This document shows, piece by piece, positions 45,722 to 61,715 of a stretch of 64,000 nt of DNA; the first letter of the stretch is position 1; the number at the start of each line of letters is the position of its first letter. The position numbers and the translations under genes are program-made. Where the stretch lies: NCBI RefSeq assembly GCF_014202315.1, contig NZ_JACHGN010000001.1:457757-521756 (forward strand), in the 5' to 3' direction. Below the pieces are notes generated by a model. The model was not told the DNA's origin and did no database searches. It saw only the letters and a list, made by a program, of their open reading frames with translations. The stretch is from Thermocatellispora tengchongensis. GTDB lineage: Bacteria; Actinomycetota; Actinomycetes; Streptosporangiales; Streptosporangiaceae.

Positions 45722-45725
45722 GGGG

Positions 45726-45998: not shown

Positions 45999-46013
45999 GT
46001 GGGTCTCCCTTCG

Positions 46014-46595: not shown

Positions 46596-46613
46596 CGTGC
46601 ACCCTCCTTTCGG

Positions 46614-47933
46614 TCAGGCGTGGGCGTGTTCGGGCAGGTGGGTGGTGATCTCGTTCCAGGACGGGGTGAGGTGGGCGTGGGTGTGGGTGGCCTGTTCGGC
46701 GGTGTGCTCGGTGACGTGGAAGGAGCGGGCGCGGTACCACTGGCCGTCCTGGGAGGCGACGATGGCCACGCCGGGTGTCTCGGCGGGGATGGCGCGGGCC
46801 GAGGCGAGGGCGGCGGGGTCGAGGTCGTCGAGGGTCATGGTGGCGGTCTCGGGGTCGTTGACCCGGTGGCAGATCCGCCCGGAGCACTGTGCCCGCAGGG
46901 CGGTGACGCCGGGGCCGAGGTCGGAACCGATGCGCTGGCCGCAGCAGAACAGGTAGATGCCAAACGCCCGCCCGAGTTGGGCGACCCGGAGCAGCGCGGT
47001 CGAGGTGCGGGCGATCTCGTCCTTCTCGCTCTTGTCGGCCATCAGGTACAGCTCGGCCAGCTCGTCGACCAGGACCACGACGGGCACCGGTCGCAGCGCG
47101 GGCGGGAGTTGCCAGATGTTGCGGGCGGCGGCCTGTCGGCACACGCCCATCCGGTCGAGCATCAGCGCGACCAGGTCATCCAGCAGCCGCCCGGCTTCCT
47201 CGCGGCAGGTGGCCAGGGCCGACAGGCGTGGTGCGTACGGGGTGAACTCCACGCCGCCCTTGAGGTCGATGCCCACCAGGGCGACCGGTTGTGGGGCCAG
47301 GCCGACGATCAGGGCGTTGGCCAGATTGGACTTGCCGGACTGTGTTGCGCCGGCGTTGAGCCAGTGCGGCACGGTGCGGAAGTCGATCATCCAGGGCCGG
47401 CCGGTTTCCAGTCGTCCCACGGTGACCTTGAGCAGGTCGGTCGAGGGCGGGAGCTGGTTGACGGTGACGAGTGGGTCGCGCATGGTCGCCGACAGGACCA
47501 CCCGTCCGGGGCCGGGTGAGGAGACGCGGATGGCGTGCACGCTCCAGGAGTGGGCGAGGCGTTCGGCGGCGTCGGTGTAATCGCCGGGGGTCTGGCCTTC
47601 CAGGGTGTGGAGGGTGACGCGCCAGCCGTGCCGGGTGGGCCGTGGCAGCCACATCAGCGGTTTGGTGTCCACGGCGACCCGCTGGAAGCGGCGCCTGACG
47701 CGGACGATGCCGGTCGAGGCGATCAGGCCGGGGACGGTGGTGAACCACCAGCGCTGTCGCTTCTTGGTCAGCCCGCACCCGAGCGCCACCCGCCGCCAGG
47801 ACGCCCGCACCGACAGGGCGACGAGCGGGAAGGCGGCGATCAGCCAGAACGACGGGTAGTGCCAGCGGCGCCAGGCCCACAGCCCCGCCCCGATCAGGGG
47901 AAGAGCCGCGAGCCAGGCCGGCAGGTCAGGCAT
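46614..47933 (-). CDS. FtsK/SpoIIIE-type DNA-transfer ATPase (TraSA-like)
   Basis: 439 residues. One to two helices at the N-terminus (LPLIGAGLWAWRRWHYPSFW), then the FtsK domain with Walker A HWLNAGATQSGKSNLANAL and Walker B PVVVLVDELAELYLM. Moves double-stranded DNA through hyphal contacts as in pSAM2 TraSA. Upstream stop/start overlap with the SCO3933-type gene is 8 bp. Confidence 0.92.
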   Translation of the reverse strand: MPDLPAWLAALPLIGAGLWAWRRWHYPSFWLIAAFPLVALSVRASWRRVALGCGLTKKRQRWWFTTVPGLIASTGIVRVRRRFQRVAVDTKPLMWLPRPTRHGWRVTLHTLEGQTPGDYTDAAERLAHSWSVHAIRVSSPGPGRVVLSATMRDPLVTVNQLPPSTDLLKVTVGRLETGRPWMIDFRTVPHWLNAGATQSGKSNLANALIVGLAPQPVALVGIDLKGGVEFTPYAPRLSALATCREEAGRLLDDLVALMLDRMGVCRQAAARNIWQLPPALRPVPVVVLVDELAELYLMADKSEKDEIARTSTALLRVAQLGRAFGIYLFCCGQRIGSDLGPGVTALRAQCSGRICHRVNDPETATMTLDDLDPAALASARAIPAETPGVAIVASQDGQWYRARSFHVTEHTAEQATHTHAHLTPSWNEITTHLPEHAHA

Positions 47934-48255
47934 CGGCGGCCTCCCGCATCGGCAGGAGCGCCGAGGCGCGGTAGGAGATGCCCCAGCGGCCGGCGATCTC
48001 CCAGACGTAGCCGAGCAGGCCGACGGCGTTGATCGGGTCGCCGGCGGTGATGGGCGGTTCGCCGGTGGTGCCGATCTTGACGAGTTCGATGCGGCCGGAC
48101 TCGTCCTCGACCGAGACGGTGACCTCGTAGACGGTGTTGCCGTTCTTGTCGGTCTTGATCTCGCCGGTGTCCCGGTTGAGGACGCGGGGGCGCGGGGCCT
48201 TGACGCAGGTGATGGTGAGCTTGCCGGTGTCCACCGGGATCGGGATCGTACGCAT
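47926..48255 (-). CDS. SCO3933-family regulatory protein
   Basis: 109 residues starting MRTIPIPVDTGKLTITCVKA, then PRVLNRDTGEIKTDKNGNTV and a strand-rich end, the pattern of the SCO3933 family found beside AICE transfer genes. Divergent from the GntR gene, so probably under KorSA-like control. Biochemical role unknown. Confidence 0.85.
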   Translation of the reverse strand: MRTIPIPVDTGKLTITCVKAPRPRVLNRDTGEIKTDKNGNTVYEVTVSVEDESGRIELVKIGTTGEPPITAGDPINAVGLLGYVWEIAGRWGISYRASALLPMREAADA

Positions 48256-48346
48256 GGCGTGATGACCTCCTTGTTCGTCCTGGTCAACATAGTTAACCTA
48301 GTTGGATCAGTTGGCGTGGCTGTCTTGGTGTGGTGAGATTGACGCG
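48256..48346. promoter_or_regulatory. Divergent promoter/operator of transfer operon and GntR gene
   Basis: 91-bp gap between the two divergent starts. AT-rich centre (near 48287-48315) with three similar words, AGTTAAC, AGTTGGA and AGTTGGC, spaced about 10 bp apart, in keeping with a GntR/KorSA binding site that blocks transfer genes. Confidence 0.55.
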
Positions 48347-48715
48347 ATGGTCAAGCACACCGGGCGGCCCGGCTACCTCCAGATCGCCGACGATCTCCGC
48401 GCCCAGATCCGAGGCGGCGCCCTCGCGCCCGGAACCCCGCTGCCCTCCACCGCCCAGCTCGCCGAGCAGTACGACGCCTCGCTGAGCGTGGTCAAGATGG
48501 CCGTCGGCATCCTGCGCAACGAGGGCCTGGTCATCGGCCAGCAGGGCAAGGGCGTGTTCGTCCGCGACCAGGCCGACGCCTCGGCCGGCAGCGACCTGGC
48601 CGACGAGGTCGCCGAGCTGCGCACCGCCGTACAAGACCTGTCGGCGCGCCTGGCGAAGGTCGAGGAGCAGCTTGCTACGTCCACGACACGCCGTTCCGCA
48701 CGTGGCAGCCGGTGA
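48347..48715 (+). CDS. GntR-family repressor (KorSA-like)
   Basis: 122 residues from the ATG at 48347. GntR winged helix YLQIADDLRAQIRGGALAPG, then LPSTAQLAEQYDASLSVVK, followed by a short coiled coil (LADEVAELRTAVQDLSARLA) in place of an effector domain. Short GntR proteins next to tra genes in AICEs act as KorSA-type transfer repressors. The last 41 bp overlap a convergent small gene. Confidence 0.88.
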   Translation: MVKHTGRPGYLQIADDLRAQIRGGALAPGTPLPSTAQLAEQYDASLSVVKMAVGILRNEGLVIGQQGKGVFVRDQADASAGSDLADEVAELRTAVQDLSARLAKVEEQLATSTTRRSARGSR

Positions 48716-48866
48716 CCCTGCGGGCCAGCGACGCCGGCACCCCGTCAGCCTGACGGCGCAGGGTCATGCCCCTGTCCTCACGGCGGATGCCGACCAGCAC
48801 CGTCACGTACCCGGCCAGCAGCGCCACCCCGAACACCCCGGCGACGATCAGCGGAAGCCAGCTCAC
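48675..48866 (-). CDS. Small membrane protein of the AICE
   Basis: 63 residues from the GTG at 48866: SWLPLIVAGVFGVALLAGYV is one membrane helix, followed by a basic tail. GTGA overlap with the upstream zinc-ribbon gene. Unknown function. Confidence 0.65.
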   Translation of the reverse strand: MSWLPLIVAGVFGVALLAGYVTVLVGIRREDRGMTLRRQADGVPASLARRVTGCHVRNGVSWT

Positions 48867-49078
48867 GTCCAGCTCACCCTCGCCGCCACGACGGTACGAG
48901 GGCCGCGCGGAGGACGCCTGGACTCGGCCCGCCGCCGCTCGCGCCGGTTCCTGGCCCGCCGCCTGTTCGCCCAGCGCTCCCGCGCCAGGCACTTGGAGCA
49001 CTGCGCCTGCCCCTCGGCCAGCGCGTTGCCGCACCAGCACGAGGGCGCCCCGTCCGGAAGCTTGATCTTGCCTGTCAT
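48863..49078 (-). CDS. Small zinc-ribbon-like basic protein
   Basis: 71 residues from the ATG at 49078: SCWCGNALAEGQAQCSKCLA gives CxC...CxxC, and the rest is very Arg-rich (RERWANRRRARNRRERRRAE), so nucleic-acid binding is likely. Coupled to the small membrane protein. Start is preceded by AAGGAGGG. Confidence 0.7.
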   Translation of the reverse strand: MTGKIKLPDGAPSCWCGNALAEGQAQCSKCLARERWANRRRARNRRERRRAESRRPPRGPRTVVAARVSWT

Positions 49079-49230
49079 CGTGCGTCCCCTCCTTCTGTCG
49101 GAAGCCGTTGTGGCTGCGTGCAACCGAGAATGCGGCGGAGCGTGAGGACGAGATCACTACACGACGGGACATGTTCAAGACGTTCGGCCTACGATGTTGC
49201 GGTCTCCGGACGTCCCCACTGGCGGGTGAG

Positions 49231-49965
49231 ATGGCGAACGAACGGCTACGCGCGGCGCTTCTGCGGAAAGGCGTGACCATCGCCGACCTGGCCGAGGCGA
49301 TCGAGGTCGATCCCAAGACCGTCGAACGCTGGATCACCAAAGGCCGCGAACCGTACCGCAAACACCGCTTCGCCACGGCCTCGTACCTGGGCGTGGACGA
49401 GTCCTACCTGTGCCCCGACGCGTTGTCCCGCGACCAGGTCGCCGCGGCCTCGCACAGCGAGGTCATCGCCGTGTACCCGCACCGCTGGACCGTTCCCCGG
49501 GACGTGTGGGGACGGCTGTTCGGCGGGGCGTCCCAGGAGATCGGCGTCCTGGTCTACAGCGGGCTGTTCCTGGCTGATGACGCAGGCCTGGTGCGGCTGT
49601 TCGCCGACAAGGCGCGGGAGGGGGTGCGGGTGCGTATCCTGCTCGGTGATCCCGACTGCGCCGAGGTCGCCCAGCGTGGCGCGGATGGGGGTGTCGGCGA
49701 CGGCATGGCCCCGCAGATCCGCAGCGCCCTGGTCCTGTACCGGCCGATCACGGGGCTGGAGAACGTCGAGATCCGGCTCCACGACACGATCCTGTACAAC
49801 TCGATCTACCGGGCCGACGACGAATTCCTGGTCAACACCCACGTGTACGGCGCCGGCAACGCCGCCGTCCTGCACCTGCGCCGGGTGGCCGGCGGGGACA
49901 TGGTCGCCACCTACGCCGAAAGCTTCGAAAGGGTCTGGGAGCGGGCTGTCCCGGTAGGGTCCTGA
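49231..49965 (+). CDS. XRE-type regulator with PLD-like C-terminal domain
   Basis: 244 residues from the ATG at 49231. HTH (LLRKGVTIADLAEAIEVDPK, then TVERWITKGREPYRKHRFAT) and a C-terminal domain with IGVLVYSGLFLADDAGLVRL, then VRVRILLGDPDC and THVYGAGNAAVLHLRR, as in DUF5919 proteins that resemble phospholipase D/ParB-type folds but without a clear HKD motif. Found often in AICEs ahead of a NUDIX gene. Possible role in controlling transfer. Confidence 0.8.
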   Translation: MANERLRAALLRKGVTIADLAEAIEVDPKTVERWITKGREPYRKHRFATASYLGVDESYLCPDALSRDQVAAASHSEVIAVYPHRWTVPRDVWGRLFGGASQEIGVLVYSGLFLADDAGLVRLFADKAREGVRVRILLGDPDCAEVAQRGADGGVGDGMAPQIRSALVLYRPITGLENVEIRLHDTILYNSIYRADDEFLVNTHVYGAGNAAVLHLRRVAGGDMVATYAESFERVWERAVPVGS

Positions 49966-49968
49966 GCC

Positions 49969-50444
49969 ATGGGCCGGCGCATCGACTTCCACCACGACCC
50001 CGACGCGCCCAAGGCCAACAGCCTGGTCCCGTCGGTGAACGTCATCGTCACCAACGACGCCGGCGACCTGCTGATGATCCACCGCACCGACAACGACAAC
50101 TGGGCCGTCCCCGGTGGGGCCATCGACCTGGGCGAGTCCCTGCTGCAGGCCGCCGTACGCGAGACGCTGGAGGAGACCGGCATCACGTGCGAGATCACCG
50201 GCCTGTCCGGCACCTACACCGACCCGGGACACGTGATCCTGTACACCAGCAACGGCGAGGTTCGGCAGGAGTTCTCCATCGTCCTGATCGCCCGAGCCGT
50301 CAGCGGCACGCCGACCCCGAGCAGCGAGTCACGCGAGGTCCGCTGGGTCCTCGTGATCAGGTGCTCGGCCTCCACATGGACCGGTCGATGCGCATGCGGA
50401 TCGAGCACTACCTGGCCGGTGTTGGCCTGCCGCATATTGGCTGA
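49969..50444 (+). pseudogene. NUDIX hydrolase (Pif-like) with a frameshift
   Basis: NUDIX box intact: GGAIDLGESLLQAAVRETLE then ETGI. In frame 1 the protein is normal up to SREVRWV (50350); after that the frame is lost, but +1 gives PRDQVLGLHMDRSMRMRIEH to a stop at 50442-50444, which is the expected family end. One C is missing in GGGTCCTCG near 50347-50351. pSAM2 carries a NUDIX gene, pif, that blocks transfer into cells already holding the element. The mutation could be real or a sequencing error. Confidence 0.8.
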
Positions 50445-50512
50445 TCGCCAGCAGCACCGCCATAGTTGACGCGTCCGGCACCTGTCACCACGAGATGCCG
50501 CGGGAGCGTCGC

Positions 50513-51007
50513 ATGCAAGGCTGGTGGGCGAACTTGTTACAAGGCGCGCTCTCTGCGGTCATCGGCGGCATCGTGGCCGCAATAACTGCTTGGGCCGTGG
50601 TCACAGCGACAAGGCGCCACGAGAGACGAGCCGCACTTGAGATCGAGGCCCGTACCAGCGCGATCGAGTTCTTCCTTCTCCTTGCTGACATAGACACCCA
50701 GCTGACCAAGGCCCTCGACAACCAGGCCACAGTGCCGCACATCACCGACAGCAAGGAATGGACGCTCAAGGCATTGAAGGCTGAGATCGCCATGTTCTCT
50801 CTCGGGCAGGAGGTGGGCAACGCGTTCTCTCAGAAGATCGGCGATCTCAGGCGCGCCCTGGAGTTGGCAGAGGGAGATAACCCTCCTAAAGAGCAGCTCG
50901 TGACGGCCTCTCTGGAGGCGCTGCATGCATGCGCTGATCATCTTGCCGAGTGGCTCATGCAGGGACGCCACAGGTCGGAATCCACGCCGACCAAGGCCAA
51001 GCTCTAA
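50513..51007 (+). CDS. Membrane-anchored AICE protein, unknown
   Basis: 164 residues from the ATG at 50513 (GGGAG 6 bp ahead; ATG 50495 is possible). One membrane helix AVIGGIVAAITAWAVVTATR then a helical soluble domain (ALEIEARTSAIEFFLLLADI; ALELAEGDNPPKEQLVTASL). AT-richer than the transfer genes. No family recognised. Confidence 0.7.
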   Translation: MQGWWANLLQGALSAVIGGIVAAITAWAVVTATRRHERRAALEIEARTSAIEFFLLLADIDTQLTKALDNQATVPHITDSKEWTLKALKAEIAMFSLGQEVGNAFSQKIGDLRRALELAEGDNPPKEQLVTASLEALHACADHLAEWLMQGRHRSESTPTKAKL

Positions 51008-51015
51008 CACATTGA

Positions 51016-51597
51016 TCACGCTTTCTGGTCACGGCTGCCCTTCAATGCGGCGCTGACGCTTCTCACCGCCGCGAGGATGCACGGGGTCGCTGCGGTGATC
51101 GAACGAGAGACGAGATGCTCGGCACCGTAGCGAGAGTGGATCTCCGCCAGCCGGTCGCGTACGTCCACGCGCCGGCCGTCCGGGCTGGTGGTCATGTCGC
51201 AGTAGGTCAGCGCCCGCGCCAGGTCCGGCCGTTCGGTGTCGAACTCGGCCGCCAGCACCTCGTACAGATCCCGTTGCCGTGCCTCGTTGTCCGCGCACGA
51301 GTGGTAGGCCACCAACCGGCACAGCCGTTCCTCGGCACCGGCCACGTCACGCAGGTACCGGGCGCCGTCGAGCTGATGCATGCCCGTGTCCACCAGGTCA
51401 GGGGCGTACCCGATGTCATGCAACAGACAGGCGGCGATCAGGGTGCCGGTGTCCGGGCCGAGGAGCGGCGCCAGGCTCTCGGCCCGTTCGGCGACGCCTT
51501 GGGTGTGCGCCCAGCGCCGGGGCAAGGCGGTCTCCAGCAGATCCTTGGCCAGCCCGTACGCCCACTCAACCTGTCCCACACGCCACACAATAGGCAT
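51016..51597 (-). CDS. HD-domain metal-dependent phosphohydrolase
   Basis: 193 residues: RRWAHTQGVAERAESLAPLL, then CLLHDIGYAPDLVDTGMHQL, LVAYHSCADNEA and LTYCDMTTSPDGR, giving the H...HD...H...D metal ligands of HD phosphohydrolases. May act on nucleotides. Paired on the minus strand with the double GntR protein, a pairing I have seen in other actinomycete elements. Substrate unknown. Confidence 0.85.
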   Translation of the reverse strand: MPIVWRVGQVEWAYGLAKDLLETALPRRWAHTQGVAERAESLAPLLGPDTGTLIAACLLHDIGYAPDLVDTGMHQLDGARYLRDVAGAEERLCRLVAYHSCADNEARQRDLYEVLAAEFDTERPDLARALTYCDMTTSPDGRRVDVRDRLAEIHSRYGAEHLVSRSITAATPCILAAVRSVSAALKGSRDQKA

Positions 51598-51645
51598 CCG
51601 GGACCGAACCGGGTCAGACGACGCGGCCAGACGTCCCAGGACGTC

Positions 51646-52137
51646 TCACCCTCGCTGCTCGCCCTGCTCACGGACGAACCGGCCACGGCCATGCTCGGCC
51701 ACCACCAGGCCCTCACGCTCCAGCACGGCCAGCGCTTGGCGCACCGTGTTGCGCGAAGCGGCGAAGCGCCGCCGCAGCGCGGCCTCACTGGGGATCGGGG
51801 CGCCGGCCGCGAGCGTTCCGCGCTCGATCTGCTCGCGGAGCGTCTCAGCGATCACCAGGTATCGGTACGGCGCCGCCGGCGCGGCCCCGCACACGATCCG
51901 CCCCTTGGCGGGGATGGTGACCAGCAGGCCCTCGTCCTCCAGGATCGCCAGCCCCCGCCGGACGGTGTTGCGCGCCACCCCGAAGGCGCGGCCCAACGCC
52001 GCCTCCGAGGGCAGCGCGCTGCCCGGCGGGAACTCACCCGAGGCGATCCGCTCCCGGAGCCGGTCGGCGATCTGCGGGTAGATTCGCCCTCCGGTCAGCC
52101 ACCGGCCGGAAGCCGCCGGTTCAGCCGCGGTAGGCAT
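51646..52137 (-). CDS. Regulator made of two tandem GntR winged helices
   Basis: 163 residues. First HTH ~20-83 (QIADRLRERIASGEFPPGSA; AFGVARNTVRRGLAILEDEG), second ~92-155 (VIAETLREQIERGTLAAGAP; RFAASRNTVRQALAVLEREG). No effector domain. The two halves are clearly similar, so it is an internal duplication that likely binds two half-sites as a monomer. Lies directly upstream of the HD gene on the same strand. Confidence 0.85.
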   Translation of the reverse strand: MPTAAEPAASGRWLTGGRIYPQIADRLRERIASGEFPPGSALPSEAALGRAFGVARNTVRRGLAILEDEGLLVTIPAKGRIVCGAAPAAPYRYLVIAETLREQIERGTLAAGAPIPSEAALRRRFAASRNTVRQALAVLEREGLVVAEHGRGRFVREQGEQRG

Positions 52138-52368
52138 CGACCATCTTGCTCAGATCGATGCGCAGCTCACCCTGCTCGCCCTCGCGCCACTGCGCCTCAG
52201 TCTCTCTCGAGCTCCGCTCGATGCTCTACATCTACCTTGGACGGATTTAACTTCTGAGTAAAGGAGCCACTCGCAGCTTCCGGATCGCCTGAACGCTTGA
52301 GGTAGCGGGTGCAAGCGACGCGAGTAGCACGTCAAGGACGAGGCGCTCCCACAGAACCGGAGTCTCAA

Positions 52369-53256
52369 TCAAATTGCCAGCGAAAATCGGTACCAACCTC
52401 GCTTCTTATTCCACGCTATTCCGGTCTTGTGCCACGGTGCTGGGATGAGCCATAGGTGCGTTATAGGGGCGACAAGAGTAGGAGGCATCGTAGGGACAGT
52501 AGCGAGCTCTGTGTGATCTTCGAGAGATCGCCATACAGGCCAATCAACGCTGTTCATGTGTGCGTAAACAGCTAGATGCGCCTCGACGCTCTCCGTAGAA
52601 GCGAGTTTCGATCGGTTGTCCTGATTGGCTGTATCCGCCATAAAGGCGTCTATCCACTGCACTACAGCGTCGGCTGACCAATTCCAGACTCCACCGCCGA
52701 GCTCCATCATCAAGCCGATCCGCGGGCCATAGGGTCCTATAGGTATCGCATCAGCGCTACGGACTCCCAGAGCGCGGAGTCGGCGAGCAGTGTTGGCGCG
52801 GTGCTGAGCCCCTACTACTCCATGACGACGGTCGACATCCCATGTCTGCACCTGACACTCGTCAAACCTCGAAACGTTCCATTTTTCTAGAGTGGACAAG
52901 AGGCCTTCCGCCTGTTTGTGCAAAAGCTTCAACGGTGGCTTCGAGATTGTATGAAGAATCCACGAGTTACGCAGGCTAGATGCCTCCCAAAAGCCATCAT
53001 CAAACTTTGGAAGGCTATTCAGGGTCCCAAGCGCTTCACCGTCCACATCGGAAGTGACTTCGACGGGGGCGGGCGGGCGGTCCGGGTAAATGATCTGCAA
53101 GTCGTGCATGCTTGTTCTGGACTGATCATCATGCTGGACTACCGGAACCCCGAGGGTTTGCTCAATGCTAGCTCTGGCAAGTTCTTCTGTAGGAGATAGC
53201 TGAATACGCTTCTTTGGCATGACCAAATCATACAGCATATTTTTGAAATCGCTCAT
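52369..53256 (-). CDS. Low-GC cargo protein with nuclease-like pattern
   Basis: About 295 residues from MSDFKNM (53256); 53277 and 53220 are other possible starts. Base composition is near 50% GC by eye against ~71% around, so it was acquired from elsewhere. Counting from 53277, H58-D59 in SMHDLQIIYPDRPPAPVEVT is followed by E73-V-T75, which recalls the D...ExK pattern of restriction-type nucleases but lacks the Lys. The rest is helical, with WNVSRFDECQVQTWDVD. No known family. Position at the right end of an AICE is typical for cargo such as defence genes; that is inference. Confidence 0.6.
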   Translation of the reverse strand: MSDFKNMLYDLVMPKKRIQLSPTEELARASIEQTLGVPVVQHDDQSRTSMHDLQIIYPDRPPAPVEVTSDVDGEALGTLNSLPKFDDGFWEASSLRNSWILHTISKPPLKLLHKQAEGLLSTLEKWNVSRFDECQVQTWDVDRRHGVVGAQHRANTARRLRALGVRSADAIPIGPYGPRIGLMMELGGGVWNWSADAVVQWIDAFMADTANQDNRSKLASTESVEAHLAVYAHMNSVDWPVWRSLEDHTELATVPTMPPTLVAPITHLWLIPAPWHKTGIAWNKKRGWYRFSLAI

Positions 53257-53277
53257 CAAAACATAGCGACATTCCAC

Positions 53278-53697
53278 GCGTAGTGGAGGAATCAGGGGGA
53301 AATCTGAGCCATCAAACAGGAAGGTGACAGATGGTGGTATTCGGACGATTGCTGACTTCGACTCTGATCAAACCATCGGTGGCAAGGTCGTAGCGACAGT
53401 AACGTCCTCACGCGCCGACGCATCGCGCCACCATCCGCACTCGCCTGACTATGGCCTCGACTAGCTGAGCAGGACGATTGCTCCGACAGGAAAGCGGACG
53501 GTCGGGCTGCCGCGCCGCTTCCGGTGCTCGGGCCTGGCGGCCCTGCGCTCCGGGTCGGCTTGCCACCGGATACGCGGGTTGCTGTGGTCTGCTGTACAGC
53601 AGGGAAGTACAGCAACGCCGCCTCACACGGCCTGATCGTCCCGTACGGCGTTACACGGTTGAGCAGCGGCGCCGACTCTCGACCGCGGCCCTCCGCT
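53278..53697. other. Right end of the AICE, non-coding, possible Int arm sites
   Basis: Between the low-GC gene and attR no gene is convincing. It contains GCTGTAC/GTACAGC (7-bp arms near 53590-53615), with TACAGCA words on both sides, which could be integrase or excisionase arm-type sites. Left part is AT-rich (53278-53345), likely the promoter of the cargo gene. Confidence 0.45.
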
Positions 53698-53744
53698 TGA
53701 CTACGGATCAGAAGGTTAGGGGTTCGAGTCCTCTCGGCCGCGCA
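53698..53744 (+). repeat. attR, 47-bp direct repeat
   Basis: Identical to attL at 42797-42843. It is a tRNA-Arg 3' fragment (anticodon arm to discriminator) without the 5' half. The bases after it (ACAGAAAAGACC) are the original downstream flank of the tRNA gene. Confidence 0.95.
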
Positions 53745-53751
53745 ACAGAAA

Positions 53752-53784
53752 AGACCCTCCGGGATCATCCCGGAGGGTCTTTTT
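53752..53784 (+). terminator. Original terminator of tRNA-Arg, now beyond attR
   Basis: AGACCCTCCGGGAT pairs with ATCCCGGAGGGTCT around a C, ending at 53780, and is followed by TTTTG. Integration of the AICE moved it 10.9 kb away from the tRNA gene. Confidence 0.9.
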
Positions 53785-53819
53785 GATCTCCGTGCGGCAG
53801 CCGCATGCAGCAACGTCCT

Positions 53820-54190
53820 CAAACGATCCCGCAGGCGTCGCCCGGACCCTCGTCGCAGCCCTCCGGCTGACTCGGCCGCAGATCAGCGCCGCCCTCAAGC
53901 GCCACGGCCGGATCTACCACCTGCAAGTCTGGACCGAGAAGATCCATGCCGGGCTGCGCGCCGAGCACCTGCGGTAACCCGGCACCCAGGCCCTGGTGCT
54001 GCTGGCCGTGCTGGACGCCGCCTGTGCGTCGGTCACGGCGCCGGAAGAACCACCATTGCCGCCTGCGCGCACGCGACGACGCGCTCATCGCCAGCTTCCC
54101 GGCTGGGATCTGACCGGTGCTCGACTGGTCGGCGATGTCGGCGACGACCGTTTCGCCTCGCCCTCGTCCGGATCGTGATCCCGGCGGCCA
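53820..54190 (+). pseudogene. Decayed IS110-type transposase fragment
   Basis: Reading across stops and frames: ALRLTRPQISAALKRHG, then KIHAGLRAEHLR (ends at a stop near 53977), TQALVLLAVLDAACASV, ALIASFPG and TGARLVGDVGDDRF. This is the order seen in the C-terminal half of IS110-family transposases (HhH-like part with PGLGxxxGARxLGEFGDD). At least two frame changes are needed. Inactive. No inverted repeats are expected for IS110. Confidence 0.6.
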
Positions 54191-54798
54191 ACGTTCATGG
54201 GGCACTTCCTGGCCTGCTCGGCTTTCTGGCAGCGTCACCAGGCTCGCGCGTTGATCAGCCGCCACCGCCGACGCGACCCGATCTCTCAAGGGTCGAATGT
54301 ATGACTCGCGTTGGAAAGATCAACCGCCATCAACACGAATCTCCACAATCGTGGTGCCACTCGACAGCCTGGCCTCACCGGAGTAGTTGCCGATCTCGTT
54401 GATCGGAAGTTCGCGAAGGCGTTTCCTTCATGCGCTGCACGATGAAATTCGCCTAGCCCGAGTGAGTGGCCTGGACGGTGGCGAGCTCTTCCGCCGGCGG
54501 GTCGAGTCTCAGCACTTCATCGCCGCGCCCTTCGATGCTTGTCCCGACCATTCTCGTGCCGCCCTCACGATCGCACTGCCGAGGGCATCCGCGTGCGCCC
54601 GTTTCGGCCTGTCCGCTGACCGTGGCGTCGATGGAAGCGGGCCTTCGGGCAATCGCACACAATGCGTTCTTCCTCAGGAATCGCCCCTCGCTTCAGAACA
54701 CTTGACAGTGACTTGACTAGTGAGTGGGCGGACGGTCACCGTCAGAACGGATCGGGGATGTTCCCTTCTTCGGCGAGGGATGGAAGGGCTAGATCGCA
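54191..54798. other. Gene-poor stretch, 600 bp
   Basis: Short frames on both strands without family matches or good ribosome sites, mixed base composition. Probably decayed mobile-element DNA. The last ~80 bp should contain the promoter of the gene at 54799 (GGAAGGGC at 54782-54789 as a weak ribosome site). Confidence 0.45.
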
Positions 54799-55869
54799 AT
54801 GAGCACCACCGATGCCAGCAAACGGTCCGGAGATCGTGATCGTGGCCGATTCGATTTGACCAACCGGCTGCTCACACAGGTCCCGGCTGACCGGGCAGGA
54901 GAATTCTGGTCGATAGGCGCCGACGGCGACGGGGGAATCGTGGTGAGCGGGGCTGAGGCTCTGATCGCCGCATTCGGGAGAGTGCGAGAGATGACCCGGC
55001 CGGTCCTGGCCGATCGGCGTCGTTACGCGGCGAACAATCGGCCGCGCGGGACGGTGCGGTTCGATCCTTGCTGGTTGGAGAGCCAGCGTGAACTGAATAC
55101 GGCGACCGTGCTCACCGACTCCGGGTACATAGGAGAAGGCGATCAGGAGGCCCTGGTCGCGATCCTGGAGCAGGCGGCACGGGCCGGGGACAACGTCTGC
55201 GCTGTCTTACCTCTGCACATCTCCTGGCTCGCGGATCCGGGTGTGAAGCTATTGACCGGCGAGGTGAATCAGCACGAGGTTCCGGTGGCGCTCGTCCTGG
55301 AACACGCCCGTGACCCGCTCGGCACTCGGTACGCGGTCAGCGGGCTCAAAGACCTGCTCAGCCAAACGCAGGTGCCGGTCGGTCTCCTGTGCACGGACAT
55401 CTCCGGCCTGGGGGCTATCGCCCACGGCGCGATGTGGGCCGCGGTCGGGGTTACTTCCGCCTTACGGCATCTGTACCCAGCCGACAGGAAGGGGCCTCCT
55501 TTCACAGGGGTGCGAGCGCGGCACGCAATCGTCCCGCGGTTGATGACGTTCATGAACGTTGAGCGGATCGCCGAAGGCTGGGCGCAGGTCCAGCGCCGCG
55601 ACGATGTGGATGAGAACATGTGGCGCTGCTACTGCGTCGAATGCGGAAACCGCACCATGGATCGGTTCGCGGCCTGTACGGATCTCAGCCTCGCCGCCCA
55701 CAACATCAGCATCCTGGACGACCTTCACCAGCAGATCACCAGCCCAGCCTCATGGGAGCGGGCGATCAGTGACGCACTGGGGTGGTACCACTGGATTCAG
55801 AACGAGTATCACCTCACCTGGGATCCACCCGCTTTCATGAACGCCTGGCTGCCCAGGTCCCGGCGTTGA
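54799..55869 (+). CDS. Unknown 356-residue protein, TIM-barrel-like with Cys motif
   Basis: ATG at 54799. The middle alternates strands and helices: TATVLTDSGYIGEGDQEALV, then CAVLPLHISWLADPGVKLLT, HEVPVALVLEHARDPLG and VPVGLLCTDISGLGAIAHGA, then GVTSALRHLYPAD. This looks like a barrel fold. Near the C-terminus CYCVECGNRTMDRF has three cysteines that could bind zinc. The look is faintly like tRNA-guanine transglycosylase-type enzymes, but no catalytic motif could be matched, so no function is given. Convergent overlap of 61 bp with the next gene. Confidence 0.7.
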   Translation: MSTTDASKRSGDRDRGRFDLTNRLLTQVPADRAGEFWSIGADGDGGIVVSGAEALIAAFGRVREMTRPVLADRRRYAANNRPRGTVRFDPCWLESQRELNTATVLTDSGYIGEGDQEALVAILEQAARAGDNVCAVLPLHISWLADPGVKLLTGEVNQHEVPVALVLEHARDPLGTRYAVSGLKDLLSQTQVPVGLLCTDISGLGAIAHGAMWAAVGVTSALRHLYPADRKGPPFTGVRARHAIVPRLMTFMNVERIAEGWAQVQRRDDVDENMWRCYCVECGNRTMDRFAACTDLSLAAHNISILDDLHQQITSPASWERAISDALGWYHWIQNEYHLTWDPPAFMNAWLPRSRR

Positions 55870-56399
55870 ACGGTCTGCTGCGACAACAGGGCGTCGTAGA
55901 CGATCTCCTCCACGAGGCGGTGGGCCCATGTCCGCTCGACGCTGACGTAGGCGTCCGGGGCCTGGATCACCTCCTGGGGTTTCTCTGCGGCCAGCAGACC
56001 AAAGCCGTGATAGATGCTCTCGGCCCGTACGGCATCCCGGTGTGCGACCTTCGCGGGCAGGACGGCCACGCGGGCGCCGAAAGCGGCGAAACCCGCTAGG
56101 TTCGCCCGTGCCGACCGCCACGAGGCTCGTACGGCGACAGCTCCGCGGATACGCACTGGTGACGGCCGTTGGAGGAACGAAGGAGCGACATGTGCTCGGC
56201 AGTGCAGCAACAGAGCGTCGGCCGTAGGGATCAACCCGGCTTTCTGACGCCTGGCGTGCTCGGGCTCGTCCAGCTCGCACACCACCACCCGAAGGGTGCT
56301 GAGCGCGCGCACCGTGACCACCTGGCAACCCTGCCACCCCAGCGCGGTAAGTACGCCTGGTAGGACGCTTTGCGTGAGGGATGCAGGCTGGGGCGTCAT
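55809..56399 (-). CDS. Unknown 196-residue protein
   Basis: ATG at 56399 (another at 56450). Basic, with QVVTVRALSTLRVVVCELDE, then PTADALLLHCRAHVAPSF, GAVAVRASWRSARANLAGFA and VAVLPAKVAHRDAVRAESIY. The strand/helix order recalls the core of small restriction-type nucleases, but no D...ExK motif is visible. Its last 61 bp run against the end of the gene at 54799, and its start faces the nuclease-helicase gene. Confidence 0.55.
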   Translation of the reverse strand: MTPQPASLTQSVLPGVLTALGWQGCQVVTVRALSTLRVVVCELDEPEHARRQKAGLIPTADALLLHCRAHVAPSFLQRPSPVRIRGAVAVRASWRSARANLAGFAAFGARVAVLPAKVAHRDAVRAESIYHGFGLLAAEKPQEVIQAPDAYVSVERTWAHRLVEEIVYDALLSQQTVQRRDLGSQAFMKAGGSQVR

Positions 56400-56570
56400 A
56401 GCCCACCACCCTGCCCACTCCTCCAGGGCGGCGCGCCGGGCGTTGCCCAATCGTCACCTCGTTGCCGCCGGGTGGACCAGCGGCGCCCCGGCAGACGGTC
56501 AGGCGGTGCTGCTTCAGGGCAGTCGTGGCAGACGGCGAAGCGGCGGGGGAGTAGATGGCCCACGCCATTT

Positions 56571-58445
56571 TCACCTCTCGAGGACAGGGACGCCCAAGTC
56601 GATCAGTAGCTGGTTGGTCGCGGGGTCGACGGAGTGGAGGACGGCTCCTCGCATACCGCGAGTCGCCAGCACCCGGTAGGTGTTACGGATCACTGTGTAG
56701 AAGTCGTCTGCGTTGATCTGGTCCGGGTCCCGGTTGTAGCGGCGTTCGGCCCGCCACCCGTTCCGCCACACCAGGTCCCGCCCGATGATGACGCCGGCGT
56801 AGTCATACTCGAACCCTTGGGCGCTGTAGATACAGCCGATCTGGCCGAAGCCTGCCGGGTCGGTGGCCCATAGCCATGATGGCGGGATCCCCTTGATGTA
56901 CTCGTCGGCTCTGGAGTTCCATGGGCGTCGCCAATCGCCGATGACGACGTCGTCCGGGAGCGTTCCGTCGGGATTCGGCTTGCTCCATGGCCAGCAGAAT
57001 CCCGCGGCGATGCGGGCCTTGTAGTTCTCCGCCACGCGCGCTCTCAGGTAGTTCTCCATCGCCAGCGGCGTGTGGGCGACATACAGCGTGAAGTTCTCCA
57101 GTGGCTGCCAGATCGGTCGCCCTTGGCTGGGGGCGAGCATGAGCAGCCGCTCGACCCAGTCGACGTACTCGGGCGAGCCGGAACAGCGGAACTGGTGCCG
57201 CAGGTTGATGACACGCATTGTGCAGCCGAGCTGTTCGGCCCTGTTGCGGATGAGTTCGAGTGATCCCACTTCGCCACGGCGCACGACTTGGTGCTCGTCA
57301 AGCAGGAACACCGGTACGCGGGCCGCGCGGATGAGTTCGTCGATCTGCGGCGGCGGGTCGCGTAGGTCGTCCTCGTCCATCCGATCACGCGAGGTTTTGC
57401 GGATCCGGTGCGCCTCATCCGCGATGATCACTTCTATGTCGCCCGGCGTGGCGTCCGAGAAGGTGTTGAAGTAGGTGAAAGCGCCCCGCTGATTACCGGA
57501 GAGGCCCGCGTACCTCCACAGGGTCCGTGTGAAGGATCGACTGCCGGTCGCGTGGATGGCATGTACCCTCTGGCGGGTCAGTGTGCCGAGCAGTTCAACA
57601 GCGATCACGCTCTTGCCGGTGCCGGGGCCGCCGACGATGACCACGACCTCCTTGGGGGCACCCTGCCTGCTCAAGGCCACCGAGCGACGCACGTAGTCGT
57701 AAGCCTCCCGTTGTTCCTCGAGCAGCGGGAATACCGTACGTTCGCGCACGCACTGGGAGACGCGGGCCATCAGCCCTTCAGCGGGTCTGACGGGTGCCTG
57801 CAGCAGGATTTCGGCCTGTTGCGCGGCCTGCTCGCCCGACAGCCGCCGGCGAAGCAGGTCCTTGAGTTCCTGGCGGTGCTCCCCTGCACCGTACAGCTCC
57901 ACCCATCTCTGCACCACGTCCTCCAGGCCCTGCACCTTGGGCCTGACGGCGTGAACCATGAGGGCGGGAGCGTTGTGCAGGTTGACGATGCCGCACAGTT
58001 TCTCATCGCGGAGCGTGGACACGTAGCCGCGTAACACCTGCAGGTAGCCCCACACCTGATTGGCCGGGTGGAGCTGCGGCGCTCCGTCGTCGCTGAGTCG
58101 CACCATGCCGGCGTCCGGCCTGACCCAGCGCCACTGCTTGTTCTCCACTACCACAACCGACATGAGGTCCGTTTGCGGGAAGGTGCCGACCAGAACCATG
58201 TCCATGCGGACGTCGGTGATCGGGGCCTTCAACTCCAGCAACACCTGCACGTCCCCGAGGCCGGCCTCTACAAGCAGGTGGACGACGGTGGGAATGCTGT
58301 TGGCCCAGGAGCGCACCTCTCGCTTGTCGGGCCTCTCCCAGAAGACTTCTCGAAAGCGTTTCTCCAGGTCGTCGCTGAAGCCGCCGCGAGCGATGGCAGC
58401 GGCGAGCTCGCCGGCACTGCTCTGATAAAGGCACTGCAACGCCAC
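56571..58445 (-). CDS. Nuclease-helicase fusion, DUF2075/Schlafen-AAA type (paralogue 1)
   Basis: 624 residues. The N-terminus has D82 and E101-N-K103 (RMDMVLVG; VVVVENKQW), a PD-(D/E)XK-type nuclease core. The C-terminal ~400 residues are an SF1-like helicase/ATPase: Walker A VIVGGPGTGKSVIA near 268-280, Walker B VIIADEAHRIRK near 337-348, FLLDEHQVV, LRHQFRCSGSPEYVDWVERL, and AQGFEYDYAGVIIGRD with RVLATRGMRGAVLHS at the end. Head to head with a 621-residue paralogue across a 462-bp gap. Nuclease-helicase proteins with this layout occur in anti-phage systems, so a defence role is a fair inference. Confidence 0.85.
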   Translation of the reverse strand: MALQCLYQSSAGELAAAIARGGFSDDLEKRFREVFWERPDKREVRSWANSIPTVVHLLVEAGLGDVQVLLELKAPITDVRMDMVLVGTFPQTDLMSVVVVENKQWRWVRPDAGMVRLSDDGAPQLHPANQVWGYLQVLRGYVSTLRDEKLCGIVNLHNAPALMVHAVRPKVQGLEDVVQRWVELYGAGEHRQELKDLLRRRLSGEQAAQQAEILLQAPVRPAEGLMARVSQCVRERTVFPLLEEQREAYDYVRRSVALSRQGAPKEVVVIVGGPGTGKSVIAVELLGTLTRQRVHAIHATGSRSFTRTLWRYAGLSGNQRGAFTYFNTFSDATPGDIEVIIADEAHRIRKTSRDRMDEDDLRDPPPQIDELIRAARVPVFLLDEHQVVRRGEVGSLELIRNRAEQLGCTMRVINLRHQFRCSGSPEYVDWVERLLMLAPSQGRPIWQPLENFTLYVAHTPLAMENYLRARVAENYKARIAAGFCWPWSKPNPDGTLPDDVVIGDWRRPWNSRADEYIKGIPPSWLWATDPAGFGQIGCIYSAQGFEYDYAGVIIGRDLVWRNGWRAERRYNRDPDQINADDFYTVIRNTYRVLATRGMRGAVLHSVDPATNQLLIDLGVPVLER

Positions 58446-58907
58446 GAAAGCGCTCCTTCGAGACGACGCCGGCCTGAGGCCGGCAGGCGAGGGGGACGAA
58501 GGATGGTGCGACTATTACTTTAGTGGCGTTTGATCACTTTGAATGTGACCGATCCTGATTCGCGGTGCTCGCCCGATGAGGGGGATTCGCCGACTATGGG
58601 CGGGTCATAAGTCGGTCATCTGGGCTGGATCTATGGCTTCCGACCGTCAGCGGCGGTGAAGTCGCAGCCAGATGAGGGCCGCTCGGCTACTCGCCGCCGG
58701 GACGCTCGGAGGTGGCAGTCCCTCGGCGGGACGGCGAGATCCTGCCGCGCCTCGTTCGCTGCATCTGGTTTTCCGAGGGAAACCGCCTCCGGTAGCCTCT
58801 TGACGACCTTGTTGCGGCCCGACGGGCTTCCGCGCTTGGACGGCTGAGCGCCGTAGTGGATACGCCCCCACCCGCGCGACTCGATTCGTGCTGCCTGGGG
58901 GAAGCCT
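58446..58907. other. Divergent spacer between nuclease-helicase genes, 462 bp
   Basis: AT-richer stretch at 58500-58555 (CTATTACTTTAGTGG; TTTGATCACTTTGAATGTG) probably contains the promoter of the minus-strand gene. 58620-58900 is G/C-rich with short unconvincing frames. No clear repeat or RNA gene. Length is large for a simple divergent promoter. Confidence 0.4.
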
Positions 58908-60773
58908 GTGACGGCATTGCGGCTGTCCGTCGAGAATCTGCTTGCCTCGCCGAACGAGGCGGTGCTCGCCGAGGTGATCAGCGAGCATGTGCGGAGGACC
59001 ACCGGCCGAGGCCCCTCGCCCGCAGAGGTACGAGCGTGGGAACGCAGTCTGCCTGCCCTCGCCCGTGATCTGGCCGACGCCGGCCTGACGAAAGTCGAGA
59101 TGCTGGTCGAGTACAAGCTGCCCCTGACGAGCAGGCGGGTGGACGTGGTGCTCGCCGGCGTTCATCCGCACACCGGCGACGACTCCTACGTGGTCGTGGA
59201 ACTCAAGCAGTGGAACCGCGCTGAGCCGTCAGAGCAGGGTGAGCATCTGGTCATCGTCGAGGGCATGCCGGGTCGAGAGATCCTGCACCCGGCCGAGCAG
59301 GTCCGCCGGTACTGCGAGTACATGTGCGACTTCCTCGGAGTGCTCCGCGACAGGCCGCAGGCGGTGCACGGTGTCGCCTACCTGCACAACGCCATGGAAC
59401 TCGACATCGATGGCCTGCGCGACCAGGTACGTGACGAACGTGCCAGGCTCTTCACCAAACAGCGCCGTGGCGAGTTCCACCGGTACCTGCGTGAACGCCT
59501 GGCCGACAAGCCTGGCGCCGAGGCCGCCGATCGTCTCCTGGAAAGCGCTGTCGCGCCGAGCAAGCAGCTCATGGCGCATGCGGCCCGGGAGATCCGGGAG
59601 CGGGAGCAGTTCACTCTGCTGGACGAGCAGCAGGTCGCGTACGAACTCGTCATGCGCGCGGTCGAGAAGGCGCGCAGGTCCGACTTCAAGCACGTCGTCA
59701 TCGTCACGGGTGGCCCGGGCAGCGGCAAGAGCGTGATCGCCCTTTCGCTGCTGGGCGAGCTCTACCGCCAGGGCAGGACCGCGCTGCACGCGACCGGCTC
59801 CCAGTCGTTCACACAGACCATGCGCCGCTACCCCGGCCGTGGAAGCACCCGCGTCAAGAACCTTTTCATGTACTTCAACAGCTTCACCGCGGCCGAGCGG
59901 AACGGCCTCGACGTGCTGATCTGTGACGAGGCACATCGCATCCGCGAGACCTCGACGAACCGCTTCACGCCCGCTGCCAAGCGCACCGGCCGGAGTCAAC
60001 TGGACGAGCTGATGGCGGCCGCCCGGGTGCCGGTGTTCCTCCTCGATGAGCATCAGGTGGTGCGGCCTGGTGAGATCGGCACCGTTCACGCCATCGAGAC
60101 GTATGCTCGGTCGCAGGGCTACGAGGTCAGCCGGGTGTCCCTGGACGAGCAGTTCAGGTGTGGCGGCAGCCGCGTCTACGAGCAATGGGTGCTTCGCCTC
60201 CTCGGTCTCGCGGACGGAGGCCCGATACCGTGGAACGGCGACGACGACTTCGAGGTACGCCTCGTGCACTCGCCCCAGGAACTCGAGGCCGCACTGCGCG
60301 CCAAGCCGGGGACAGCCCGCATGACCGCCGGCTACTGCTGGGTCTGGAGCGAGCCCCGCCCGGACGATTCCCTGGTGGACGATGTCGTCATCGGGGACTG
60401 GTCACGGCCCTGGAACGTCAAGAAGGACCGCGCGGTCGGAGACGCCCCGCCCAGCATGCTGTGGGCCACCGAGCCGAGCGGTTTCGGTCAGGTCGGATGC
60501 GTCTACACCGCCCAAGGGTTCGAGTACGACTGGTCCGGCGTGATCCTCGGGCCGGATCTCAGCGTTCGGGATGGACGGCTGGTCACGGTGCGTGAGAACA
60601 ACCGGGACCCCGCTTTCAAGAGCAAGAAGACGGTGCCGGACGCCGAGTTCGAGCGGCTGGTCCGCAATGTGTACAAGGTACTGCTCACGCGCGGCATGCG
60701 CGGCACCGTGATCTATGCGGTAGACCCGTCGCTCCGCGACTTCCTGCAGCGTCTTATCCCTGCCGAGACCTGA
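58908..60773 (+). CDS. Nuclease-helicase fusion, DUF2075/Schlafen-AAA type (paralogue 2)
   Basis: 621 residues from the GTG at 58908. Nuclease part with D79 and E98-L-K100 (RRVDVVLAG; YVVVELKQW), same spacing as in paralogue 1. SF1-like ATPase with IVTGGPGSGKSVIALSLLGE near 265-284, VLICDEAHRIRETS near 336-348, FLLDEHQVVRPGEIG, LDEQFRCGGSRVYEQWVLRL, QGFEYDWSGVILGPD and YKVLLTRGMRGTVIY. The two proteins are similar along the full length but clearly diverged, so this is an old duplication. The pair may form two arms of one defence unit or act against different targets. Confidence 0.85.
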   Translation: MTALRLSVENLLASPNEAVLAEVISEHVRRTTGRGPSPAEVRAWERSLPALARDLADAGLTKVEMLVEYKLPLTSRRVDVVLAGVHPHTGDDSYVVVELKQWNRAEPSEQGEHLVIVEGMPGREILHPAEQVRRYCEYMCDFLGVLRDRPQAVHGVAYLHNAMELDIDGLRDQVRDERARLFTKQRRGEFHRYLRERLADKPGAEAADRLLESAVAPSKQLMAHAAREIREREQFTLLDEQQVAYELVMRAVEKARRSDFKHVVIVTGGPGSGKSVIALSLLGELYRQGRTALHATGSQSFTQTMRRYPGRGSTRVKNLFMYFNSFTAAERNGLDVLICDEAHRIRETSTNRFTPAAKRTGRSQLDELMAAARVPVFLLDEHQVVRPGEIGTVHAIETYARSQGYEVSRVSLDEQFRCGGSRVYEQWVLRLLGLADGGPIPWNGDDDFEVRLVHSPQELEAALRAKPGTARMTAGYCWVWSEPRPDDSLVDDVVIGDWSRPWNVKKDRAVGDAPPSMLWATEPSGFGQVGCVYTAQGFEYDWSGVILGPDLSVRDGRLVTVRENNRDPAFKSKKTVPDAEFERLVRNVYKVLLTRGMRGTVIYAVDPSLRDFLQRLIPAET

Positions 60774-60947
60774 GCCGGTCGTCTCCCTGTCAGGCGCGCG
60801 CATCTTCTGCAGCAGGCGGTCCCGGAGCGCTGCCCGCGCGGCTGTCGGTCGGGCTCGAACGCGAGGGCTGCGCCGGTGGGTTGTCGCCGTGCTCGCGCTT
60901 GTCCTGCTGGCGGGTGGCGTGGTGGGGAGCTGGACTGGGAGGTGACT

Positions 60948-61715
60948 GTGACGCGGGAGGAAACGGGAGTGCGGGGGTCGGAGCGGCTGTGGCATCTTGT
61001 CCGGTCCTACGGCATGGGCGAGTGGTTCATGGCCGCGTGGGTGGAGGGCCTGGAGGTGTGGGAGGCCGCCAGGCGTCTGGGCGCGTCGGTGGCGGATGTG
61101 GACGACGGGGTCGTGTGCGCATGGACGGACGCCGTGCGTGGGCGGCCTGCCGACGGTGACGCGGGGATCGTCTGGGCCGGGCCGCTGACCGCGGGGTGGA
61201 CGCAGATCATCCAGGTGCGCGGGGCCGACTGCGAGACGGGCCTGCGGGAGCTGTCGTACGGCGGGCGGGCGCTGCTGGTGAGCTGGGGCCTGAACGGGCC
61301 GCGTGATCTCGAATACGCGGTTGACGGCGAGTACGTCACGGGGCTCAGCGTGACCGTTCCCGGCGAGCGCTGGGGGAGCGACCCTCACGCACTCGACTCC
61401 TACGCCCAAGGGCTGCGGTTCGATCTCAGCGACTCCGGTTGGCGGAGCGACCCGGAGTTGCCGCCGGGGTGGCTGGAGTACTGCGCGTGGGAGGAGGCTC
61501 GGCTGGAGAACGGGGAAGACCACGGCGAGGAGGACATGCCCGGCGAGTGGCAGGACCTCGTCGCGCTCGCCTGCAACGGGTATCACCCGCCCATGGCGAC
61601 GTGCCTGACGTCGGCCCTGGCGCTGGTCGGCAGGGTGACGGGCAGGGAGATCGACCGGGCCTGGATGGACCAGGCCCACACCCGCTACCTGATCCGCGGG
61701 GCGTCGGTCCGTTGA
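60948..61715 (+). CDS. DUF6461-like protein
   Basis: 255 residues from the GTG at 60948 (GGGAGG 10 bp ahead). ERLWHLVRSYGMGEWFMAAW, then VEGLEVWEAARRLGASV, and later GWTQIIQVRGADCETGLREL and DLEYAVDGEYVTGLSVTVPG, in line with DUF6461. The family is found across actinomycetes and its role is not known. Stands alone between the helicase gene and a convergent coiled-coil gene. Confidence 0.7.
   Translation: MTREETGVRGSERLWHLVRSYGMGEWFMAAWVEGLEVWEAARRLGASVADVDDGVVCAWTDAVRGRPADGDAGIVWAGPLTAGWTQIIQVRGADCETGLRELSYGGRALLVSWGLNGPRDLEYAVDGEYVTGLSVTVPGERWGSDPHALDSYAQGLRFDLSDSGWRSDPELPPGWLEYCAWEEARLENGEDHGEEDMPGEWQDLVALACNGYHPPMATCLTSALALVGRVTGREIDRAWMDQAHTRYLIRGASVR

What the first reader, a model, noticed from the sequence alone, without database searches (positions are those of the whole stretch)
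56571..60773. Head-to-head pair of nuclease-helicase paralogues, candidate defence system
Two ~620-residue proteins share the same architecture: D-x18-ExK nuclease (D82/E101/K103 and D79/E98/K100) plus an SF1-like ATPase of DUF2075 type. They are diverged and divergent, with a 462-bp spacer. Single nuclease-helicase proteins (for example Nhi) are known in phage defence; a divergent paired version next to mobile-element relics is, to my knowledge, not described.
Basis: partly seen in the sequence, partly recalled or inferred. Interest (0 to 1): 0.7.

Follow-up and report, generated by a model that had tools for sequence, protein, structure and literature searches.

The report
Paired nuclease-helicases with RNA leader
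Two related DNA-cutting motor proteins sit back to back in a mobile-DNA hotspot of an actinobacterium; they belong to a large, probably phage-defence, family whose members often sit with a nucleotide-destroying enzyme or a modified-DNA cutter, and one of the two is preceded by a conserved folded RNA, absent from Rfam, that probably controls how much of it is made.

Summary
A (56571-58445 -) and B (58908-60773 +) are intact, 45% identical fusions of a PD-(D/E)XK nuclease and an SF1B helicase (Pfam SLFN-g3, formerly DUF2075). The D/E/K residues and a RecB-type QxxxY motif are near-invariant in 134 relatives. B's model (pLDDT 90) matches RecD/RecD2, Dna2 and SLFN11. Head-to-head pairing is not a conserved system: I saw it in one other genome (G254). 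Paralogue clusters are common but in every geometry, and most A-type genes have no B beside them. The better-supported picture: B-type genes commonly form an operon with a DCTPP1-type dCTP pyrophosphatase, A-type genes sit beside EVE-domain nucleases (closest solved relative VcaM4I), and the pair here lies in an 18-kb island at tRNA-Arg, outside the AICE in that island. A stands where the pyrophosphatase gene usually stands; a short relic of it remains. Unexpected: a ~100-nt structured leader RNA, not in Rfam, directly precedes nearly all B-type genes examined; covariation supports it, it can pair with the Shine-Dalgarno sequence, and every strong genomic match checked lies at such a gene. Defence is inferred from context and fold; nothing was tested. 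Verdict: new variant of a known kind.

The parts
56571..58445 (-). Gene A: nuclease-helicase, 624 aa; PD-(D/E)XK nuclease D82/E101/K103 with Q130xxxY134, SF1 helicase 265-607
58908..60773 (+). Gene B: nuclease-helicase, 621 aa; D79/E98/K100 with Q131xxxY135, Walker A 268-275, helicase 261-606
58813..58926 (+). Conserved structured leader RNA of B, running through the Shine-Dalgarno and the GTG start; only strong copy in the genome
   Evidence: R1: 88.9 bits, E=8.6e-20
58771..58803 (+). Probable relic of the C-terminus of a MazG/DCTPP1-like gene (FRGKPPPVAS*; intact relatives FRGSARKAPPLTS*)
58446..58907 (.). Spacer between the two start codons; ~55 bp at the A end resemble the spacer of the G254 pair, ~130 bp at the B end resemble the DNA before B in relatives
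42843..60950 (.). 18.1-kb genomic island between tRNA-Arg(ACG) and DUF6461, absent in G215 and G330 where the two are about 230-245 bp apart
42797..53744 (.). AICE (int, xis, RepSA-like, FtsK/TraSA-like, GntR) bounded by 47-bp att repeats 42797-42843 and 53698-53744; the pair lies outside it
   Evidence: gene names by reading of the sequence
54799..55869 (+). 356-aa neighbour with CxCxxC...H, weakly like tRNA-guanine transglycosylase; its 54662-56464 unit is found elsewhere without the pair, so probably a separate passenger
60948..61715 (+). DUF6461 gene: chromosomal flank marking the right edge of the island

Best explanation
A and B are two members of an actinobacterial family of Dna2-like (nuclease first, helicase second) RecB-type nuclease plus SF1B helicase proteins that most likely destroys invading DNA. 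Proposed working: the helicase loads on single strands or ends of replicating or damaged foreign DNA, translocates, and the nuclease cuts (inferred from fold and motifs). At standard loci B-type proteins work with a co-transcribed dCTP pyrophosphatase that would lower or sanitise the (modified) dCTP pool, and A-type proteins work beside EVE-domain nucleases that would nick base-modified DNA (partner genes shown, joint action inferred). B is kept low by a folded leader RNA that pairs with its Shine-Dalgarno sequence and has an alternative fold (structure supported, regulation inferred). In this window A occupies the place of B's pyrophosphatase partner inside a tRNA-Arg island, so the head-to-head pair is one local combination of a modular system rather than a fixed two-gene machine.
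For: Catalytic residues near-invariant. B model pLDDT 89.8; best PDB folds are RecD of RecBCD (2.3e-11), RecD2, Dna2 nuclease-helicase, Dda, human SLFN11. Pyrophosphatase gene within 2 kb of the family gene at 46 of 80 loci, mostly just upstream on the same strand, of DCTPP1/RS21-C6 type, 5.9e-23. EVE-nuclease within 3 kb of 11 of 17 A-type versus 9 of 118 B/C-type genes (Fisher 3e-7); profile and fold both pick VcaM4I 6yex (1.6e-9, 1.9e-9). The same partners recur on Streptomyces and Nocardiopsis plasmids. Empty site in G215/G330. Leader: 97 aligned copies, 96% of cells paired against 34-49% when slid, double changes in helices P1 and P2, alternative pairing 99.5%; all 18 strong copies fetched lie directly before a family gene.
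Against: No phenotype, no biochemistry. Many B/C-type loci have neither partner close by. The dCTP-pyrophosphatase gene is also widespread on its own (193 of 342 family genomes), so its adjacency could reflect a housekeeping neighbour. A DNA-repair role cannot be excluded. The pyrophosphatase relic is only about 11 codons. Loci counts are not corrected for phylogeny.
Confidence: 0.6

Rival explanations
1. A and B form an obligate heteromeric two-protein defence system expressed from the divergent spacer.
For: Same divergent arrangement in G254 (A 82%, B 64%), other A-B neighbours in four further genomes (L031, L140, L149, broken in L051), with A and B partners from different subclades, so adjacency arose more than once. 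Both genes are intact and under purifying selection.
Against: About two thirds of A-type genes and the great majority of B-type genes have no partner of the other type nearby. A and B have different usual partners. B is preceded by its own leader in every setting.
Confidence: 0.17
2. The family is a host DNA-repair or recombination nuclease-helicase, not a defence system.
For: Closest folds are RecD, RecD2 and Dna2; a nucleotide-pool-sanitising partner would suit repair.
Against: Patchy presence (121 of 343 genomes of the family), repeated paralogue clusters, EVE-nuclease partners, plasmid copies and an island location are unusual for a core repair enzyme.
Confidence: 0.2
3. The pair is inert cargo: leftover genes carried by the tRNA-Arg island.
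For: Lies beside an AICE in an island with an unrelated passenger; the pyrophosphatase partner is lost locally and an orphan copy is elsewhere in the genome.
Against: Both frames intact, all motifs kept, low Ka/Ks, intact leader.
Confidence: 0.05
4. The conserved DNA before B is a transcription-factor operator, not an RNA switch (rival for the leader only).
For: The inner palindrome GCACGA...TCGTGC is nearly invariant and would also suit a dimeric regulator.
Against: G-U pairs outnumber A-C mismatches in P0, P1, P2-inner and the alternative helix (13:4, 18:5, 7:0, 9:2), double changes keep P1 and P2, and the element runs through the Shine-Dalgarno to the start codon. In P2-outer, however, A-C mismatches (23) outnumber G-U (11).
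Confidence: 0.25

Closest known systems
Pfam PF09848 SLFN-g3_helicase (DUF2075) proteins
   Same: Whole helicase half, full profile length, E down to 2e-86
   Different: The Pfam entry covers only the helicase; the RecB-type N-terminal nuclease is not in it
Dna2 nuclease-helicase
   Same: PD-(D/E)XK nuclease then SF1 helicase order; fold hit 8e-9
   Different: About half the length, bacterial; no sequence relationship beyond motifs; iron-sulphur cysteines not looked for
Nhi (nuclease-helicase immunity, Staphylococcus)
   Same: Single-protein nuclease-helicase of anti-phage function (PMC12904381, PMC10732053); ATPase related
   Different: PADLOC Nhi model matches only residues ~235-420 with 28-31 bits
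PADLOC PDC-S41 (phage-defence candidate)
   Same: Best PADLOC match of both proteins, 46 and 66 bits
   Different: Weak, best stretch is C-terminal only; no function described in the papers found
UvrD-like helicase fused to Cas4-like PD-(D/E)XK nuclease, multiple paralogues near EVE genes in Nocardia (PMC7641849)
   Same: Architecture, multiple paralogues, EVE context, actinobacteria
   Different: One sentence only; sequences not compared here, so identity of the family is not proven
VcaM4I-type EVE-HNH modification-dependent endonucleases (PMC7897488)
   Same: Closest solved relative of the A-type neighbours
   Different: Neighbour genes of relatives, not present in this window; some have PD-(D/E)XK-like or DUF3883/NOV_C parts instead of HNH
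DCTPP1 / RS21-C6 dCTP pyrophosphatase
   Same: Operon partner of B-type genes, 5.9e-23 to 2a3q/6sqw
   Different: Bacterial; activity untested; only a relic in this window
Hachiman HamAB
   Same: Helicase sensing damaged DNA plus nuclease (PMC12278908): functional analogue
   Different: Two separate proteins, not detectably related here (no PADLOC match)

Membership tests
SLFN-g3 / DUF2075 helicase (PF09848) | Profile match above gathering score over the whole domain | tested here: met
   252.6 and 290.7 bits, cut-off 24, profile 1-354/354
RecB-type PD-(D/E)XK nuclease | D...ExK plus QxxxY on the following helix | tested here: met
   D79, E98, K100, Q131, Y135 each kept in 133 of 134; strands 77-85 and 92-100 and helix 128-142 in the model. 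No Pfam nuclease model matched
SF1B helicase | RecD/RecD2/Dda-like fold with Walker A and B | tested here: met
Nhi | Full-length similarity including the Nhi nuclease domain | tested here: not met
   Only the ATPase segment matches
Nhi | Anti-phage activity linked to phage SSB | not testable with these tools
   needs phage assays
Conserved divergent two-gene system | A and B regularly adjacent and divergent across genomes | tested here: not met
   Divergent in window and G254 only; A without B at about two thirds of A-type loci
Anti-phage defence system | Protection phenotype | not testable with these tools
   context only
Known Rfam RNA family (leader) | Match to any of 4227 models | tested here: not met
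   none at E<=0.5 in 52-62 kb
Structured cis-regulatory RNA | Compensatory base changes and fixed position before one gene family | tested here: met
   sequence conservation is high, so independent double changes are few
Structured cis-regulatory RNA | Changes expression in response to a signal | not testable with these tools
   needs reporters and structure probing
tRNA-guanine transglycosylase (54799-55869) | Profile similarity and zinc site | tested here: inconclusive
   CxCxxC...H conserved; about 40 weak PDB hits are nearly all TGT but best E=0.15

The most novel reading that the evidence does not exclude
The leader is a bistable RNA switch, absent from Rfam, dedicated to this family of nuclease-helicases: box GACGGGC pairs either with GCCC (freeing the Shine-Dalgarno) or releases GCCCCC to close it, so that translation of a potentially self-harming DNA-degrading enzyme is turned on by infection or set by the enzyme's own concentration. 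A defence nuclease would then be gated after transcription by its own structured 5' leader, conserved from Streptosporangium and Micromonospora to Streptomyces relatives.
Probability: 0.35. Interest if true: 0.78.

Novelty: new variant of a known kind. Interest (0 to 1): 0.6.

Why it matters
The family is large (528 relatives of B found by one scan) and has no described function in the papers searched. Tying it to a dCTP pyrophosphatase, to EVE-domain modification-dependent nucleases and to a dedicated leader RNA gives testable predictions: it should act against phages with modified or heavily replicating DNA, and its dose should be set at translation. If the RNA is a switch, it would make directly testable how a bacterium keeps a self-harming nuclease silent until infection.

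Tried and rejected
Conserved head-to-head system: rejected on geometry counts. Pair as cargo of the AICE: rejected, attR at 53698-53744 lies 2.8 kb before gene A and no third att copy was found up to 19 kb beyond the window. Membership in Nhi: rejected. EVE or pyrophosphatase gene in the window: none found by profile search; the nearest pyrophosphatase is an orphan on another contig. TGT-like neighbour as part of the system: its close relatives (71-82%) travel without nuclease-helicases, although distant relatives sit near family genes in a few loci; left open. A sigma-70 scan of the spacer found nothing (it does not cover all actinobacterial promoters). A-type leader: an SD-containing hairpin is visible before A and in close relatives, but RNAalifold found no consensus over 17 sequences; not claimed. 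Literature: DUF2075 gave five irrelevant papers.
Full report
What is there. They are 45% identical over 590 residues, hit Pfam SLFN-g3_helicase/DUF2075 end to end and are the only two full-length members in the 11.65-Mb genome. In 134 relatives the nuclease residues D79, E98, K100 are accompanied by Q131xxxY135, the motif of RecB-type PD-(D/E)XK nucleases; each is kept in 133 of 134, and Walker A and B residues are about as constant. The AlphaFold model of B (pLDDT 89.8, pTM 0.89) matches RecD of RecBCD, RecD2, Dna2, Dda and human SLFN11. Nuclease-then-helicase order is that of Dna2. Ka/Ks is 0.07-0.19 against near relatives.

Is the pair a system? A family tree (quick method) separates an A clade (18 rows) from a much larger B/C clade. 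In the same taxonomic family 121 of 343 genomes carry a member. A next to B was seen here and in G254 head-to-head, in L031 and L140 as A then B on one strand, in L149 with an EVE-HNH gene between them, and in L051 with both genes broken. The A of G254 is 82% like ours but its B is only 64%, whereas the B nearest ours (91%, L140) stands beside an A of 58%: partners are exchanged. About two thirds of A-type genes have no B nearby. B genes also pair with other paralogues, often tail to tail. So clustering of paralogues is real, but no fixed divergent pair exists.

Usual partners. At 46 of 80 genome contigs a short gene lies within 2 kb of the family gene, usually ending about a hundred bases before the B start on the same strand. 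It passes the Pfam MazG cut-off and is closest to dCTP pyrophosphatase 1/RS21-C6 (5.9e-23). A-type genes instead sit beside ~320-340-residue proteins: 11 of 17 within 3 kb versus 9 of 118 B/C-type genes, Fisher 3e-7 (most of the nine share the locus with an A- or D-type gene; loci are not phylogenetically independent). A profile of these matches VcaM4I EVE-HNH endonuclease (1.6e-9), and the model of one (pLDDT 79.8) has VcaM4I as best fold followed by EVE and YTH domains. Variants carry DUF3883/NOV_C (L135) or, by reading of the alignment, a PD-(D/E)XK-like C-terminus. Independent confirmation comes from Streptomyces plasmids (DUF3883 gene directly before the DUF2075 gene) and a Nocardiopsis plasmid (EVE gene, pyrophosphatase gene, nuclease-helicase).

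The locus in this genome. tRNA-Arg(ACG) at 42769-42842 is followed by an AICE with 47-bp direct repeats (42797-42843, 53698-53744). In G215 and G330 tRNA-Arg and the DUF6461 gene are neighbours about 230-245 bp apart; here 18.1 kb lies between. The pair is in the second part of this island, outside the AICE. The 54662-56464 unit beside it is 75-82% conserved in five genomes without the pair. The ~130 bp before B are 82-85% like those before B in Planotetraspora, Microbispora and Microtetraspora relatives, where they begin inside the end of the pyrophosphatase gene; here the last codons read FRGKPPPVAS* against FRGSARKAPPLTS*. I infer that A stands where the pyrophosphatase stood. Short traces (APPL...) before B in other loci without the gene suggest it has been lost repeatedly. 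The genome keeps one orphan pyrophosphatase (74%) on another contig.

The leader RNA. The same comparison showed that the DNA from ~95 bp upstream of B to its start is conserved before most B/C-type genes; only the A-type-only loci and three Nocardiopsis-type loci plus L140 escaped a strict pattern search, and R1 later found one of those three, L167. The 97 copies vary in length (93-119 nt) in all three residues modulo 3 and carry stops in different frames, so it is not coding. Consensus: UGCGGCCCGACGGGCUUCCGC, a variable loop, GCGGA(C/U)A-GCCCCCA-C-CCGCACGA-loop-UCGUGCUG-CC-UGGGGG, then the start codon. Helices (alignment columns): P0 5-8/12-15, P1 17-20/51-54, P2 59-65/95-100 and 70-76/85-90. 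96.1% of cells pair, 34-49% if slid; five pairs have double changes, 17 cells (shuffles: 3.2). An alternative helix of box GGGC with GCCC, which would free the GGGGG, is paired in 99.5% of cells with four double-change cells. G-U pairs exceed A-C mismatches in four of the five helices, which favours RNA over a DNA palindrome; P2-outer is the exception, with many A-C at its closing pair. Rfam has no match. A covariance model finds a single copy in this genome, at B, copies in 41 of 151 family genomes and in a few more distant genomes of the class. All 18 strong matches fetched have a family gene directly downstream; the three weak ones (28-30 bits) do not and are probably chance. A-type genes lack it.

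Mechanism. Shown: domain composition, conserved catalytic residues, partner genes, leader structure by comparative evidence, island location. Inferred: that the helicase loads on foreign or damaged DNA and the nuclease degrades it; that the pyrophosphatase limits or cleans the dCTP pool; that EVE nucleases mark modified DNA; that the leader gates translation. Comparable known logic: Nhi and Hachiman respond to replication or damage intermediates (PMC12904381, PMC10732053, PMC12278908).

Prior knowledge. PMC7641849 (section 8) mentions multiple paralogues of UvrD-like helicase fused to Cas4-like PD-(D/E)XK nuclease as putative defence near EVE genes in Nocardia; this may be the same family and reduces the novelty of the proteins and of their clustering. 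I found no report of the pyrophosphatase operon or of the leader in the papers searched (full-text search of open papers only).

Limits. Loci counts mix related species; the tree was the quick method; the gene caller used for neighbours was home-made; no experiment was possible.

Noticed in passing
window 42797-53744: Apparently complete pSAM2-like AICE in tRNA-Arg(ACG) with 47-bp att repeats; the same tRNA site holds shorter inserts in G110 (~4 kb) and G113 (~1.4 kb), so it is an integration hotspot.
   Followed up: partly
window 54799-55869: 356-aa protein with conserved CxCxxC...H and weak TGT-like profile hits; distant relatives lie near nuclease-helicase genes in L099, L148, L189, L190.
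   Followed up: partly
window 58446-58560: Sequence just before A forms a predicted hairpin (CCUUCG...CGAAGG) that covers its AAGGAG Shine-Dalgarno; similar in L137, L146, L147, L150. No consensus fold over all A-type genes.
   Followed up: partly
L145 2983-9565: An A-type gene apparently split by an insertion, its C-terminal part read in frame into an EVE-like protein; not resolved whether fusion or disruption.
   Followed up: no
L224 (MT836681.1, human gut 'Bacteriophage sp.' scaffold): Carries a 58% B-like gene with leader RNA and a divergent pyrophosphatase gene; a bacterial or mobile-element contig, or a phage carrying the module.
   Followed up: no
L146 9686-12429: Beside an A-type gene: HNH protein plus AAA ATPase resembling Septu (PtuB/PtuA), read by eye, and an HsdM-like gene.
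   Followed up: no
L033/L034 7059-7161, L040 1906-2008: Divergent leader-like sequence ~0.8 kb before a B gene that lacks the usual leader; possibly a displaced or second version.
   Followed up: no
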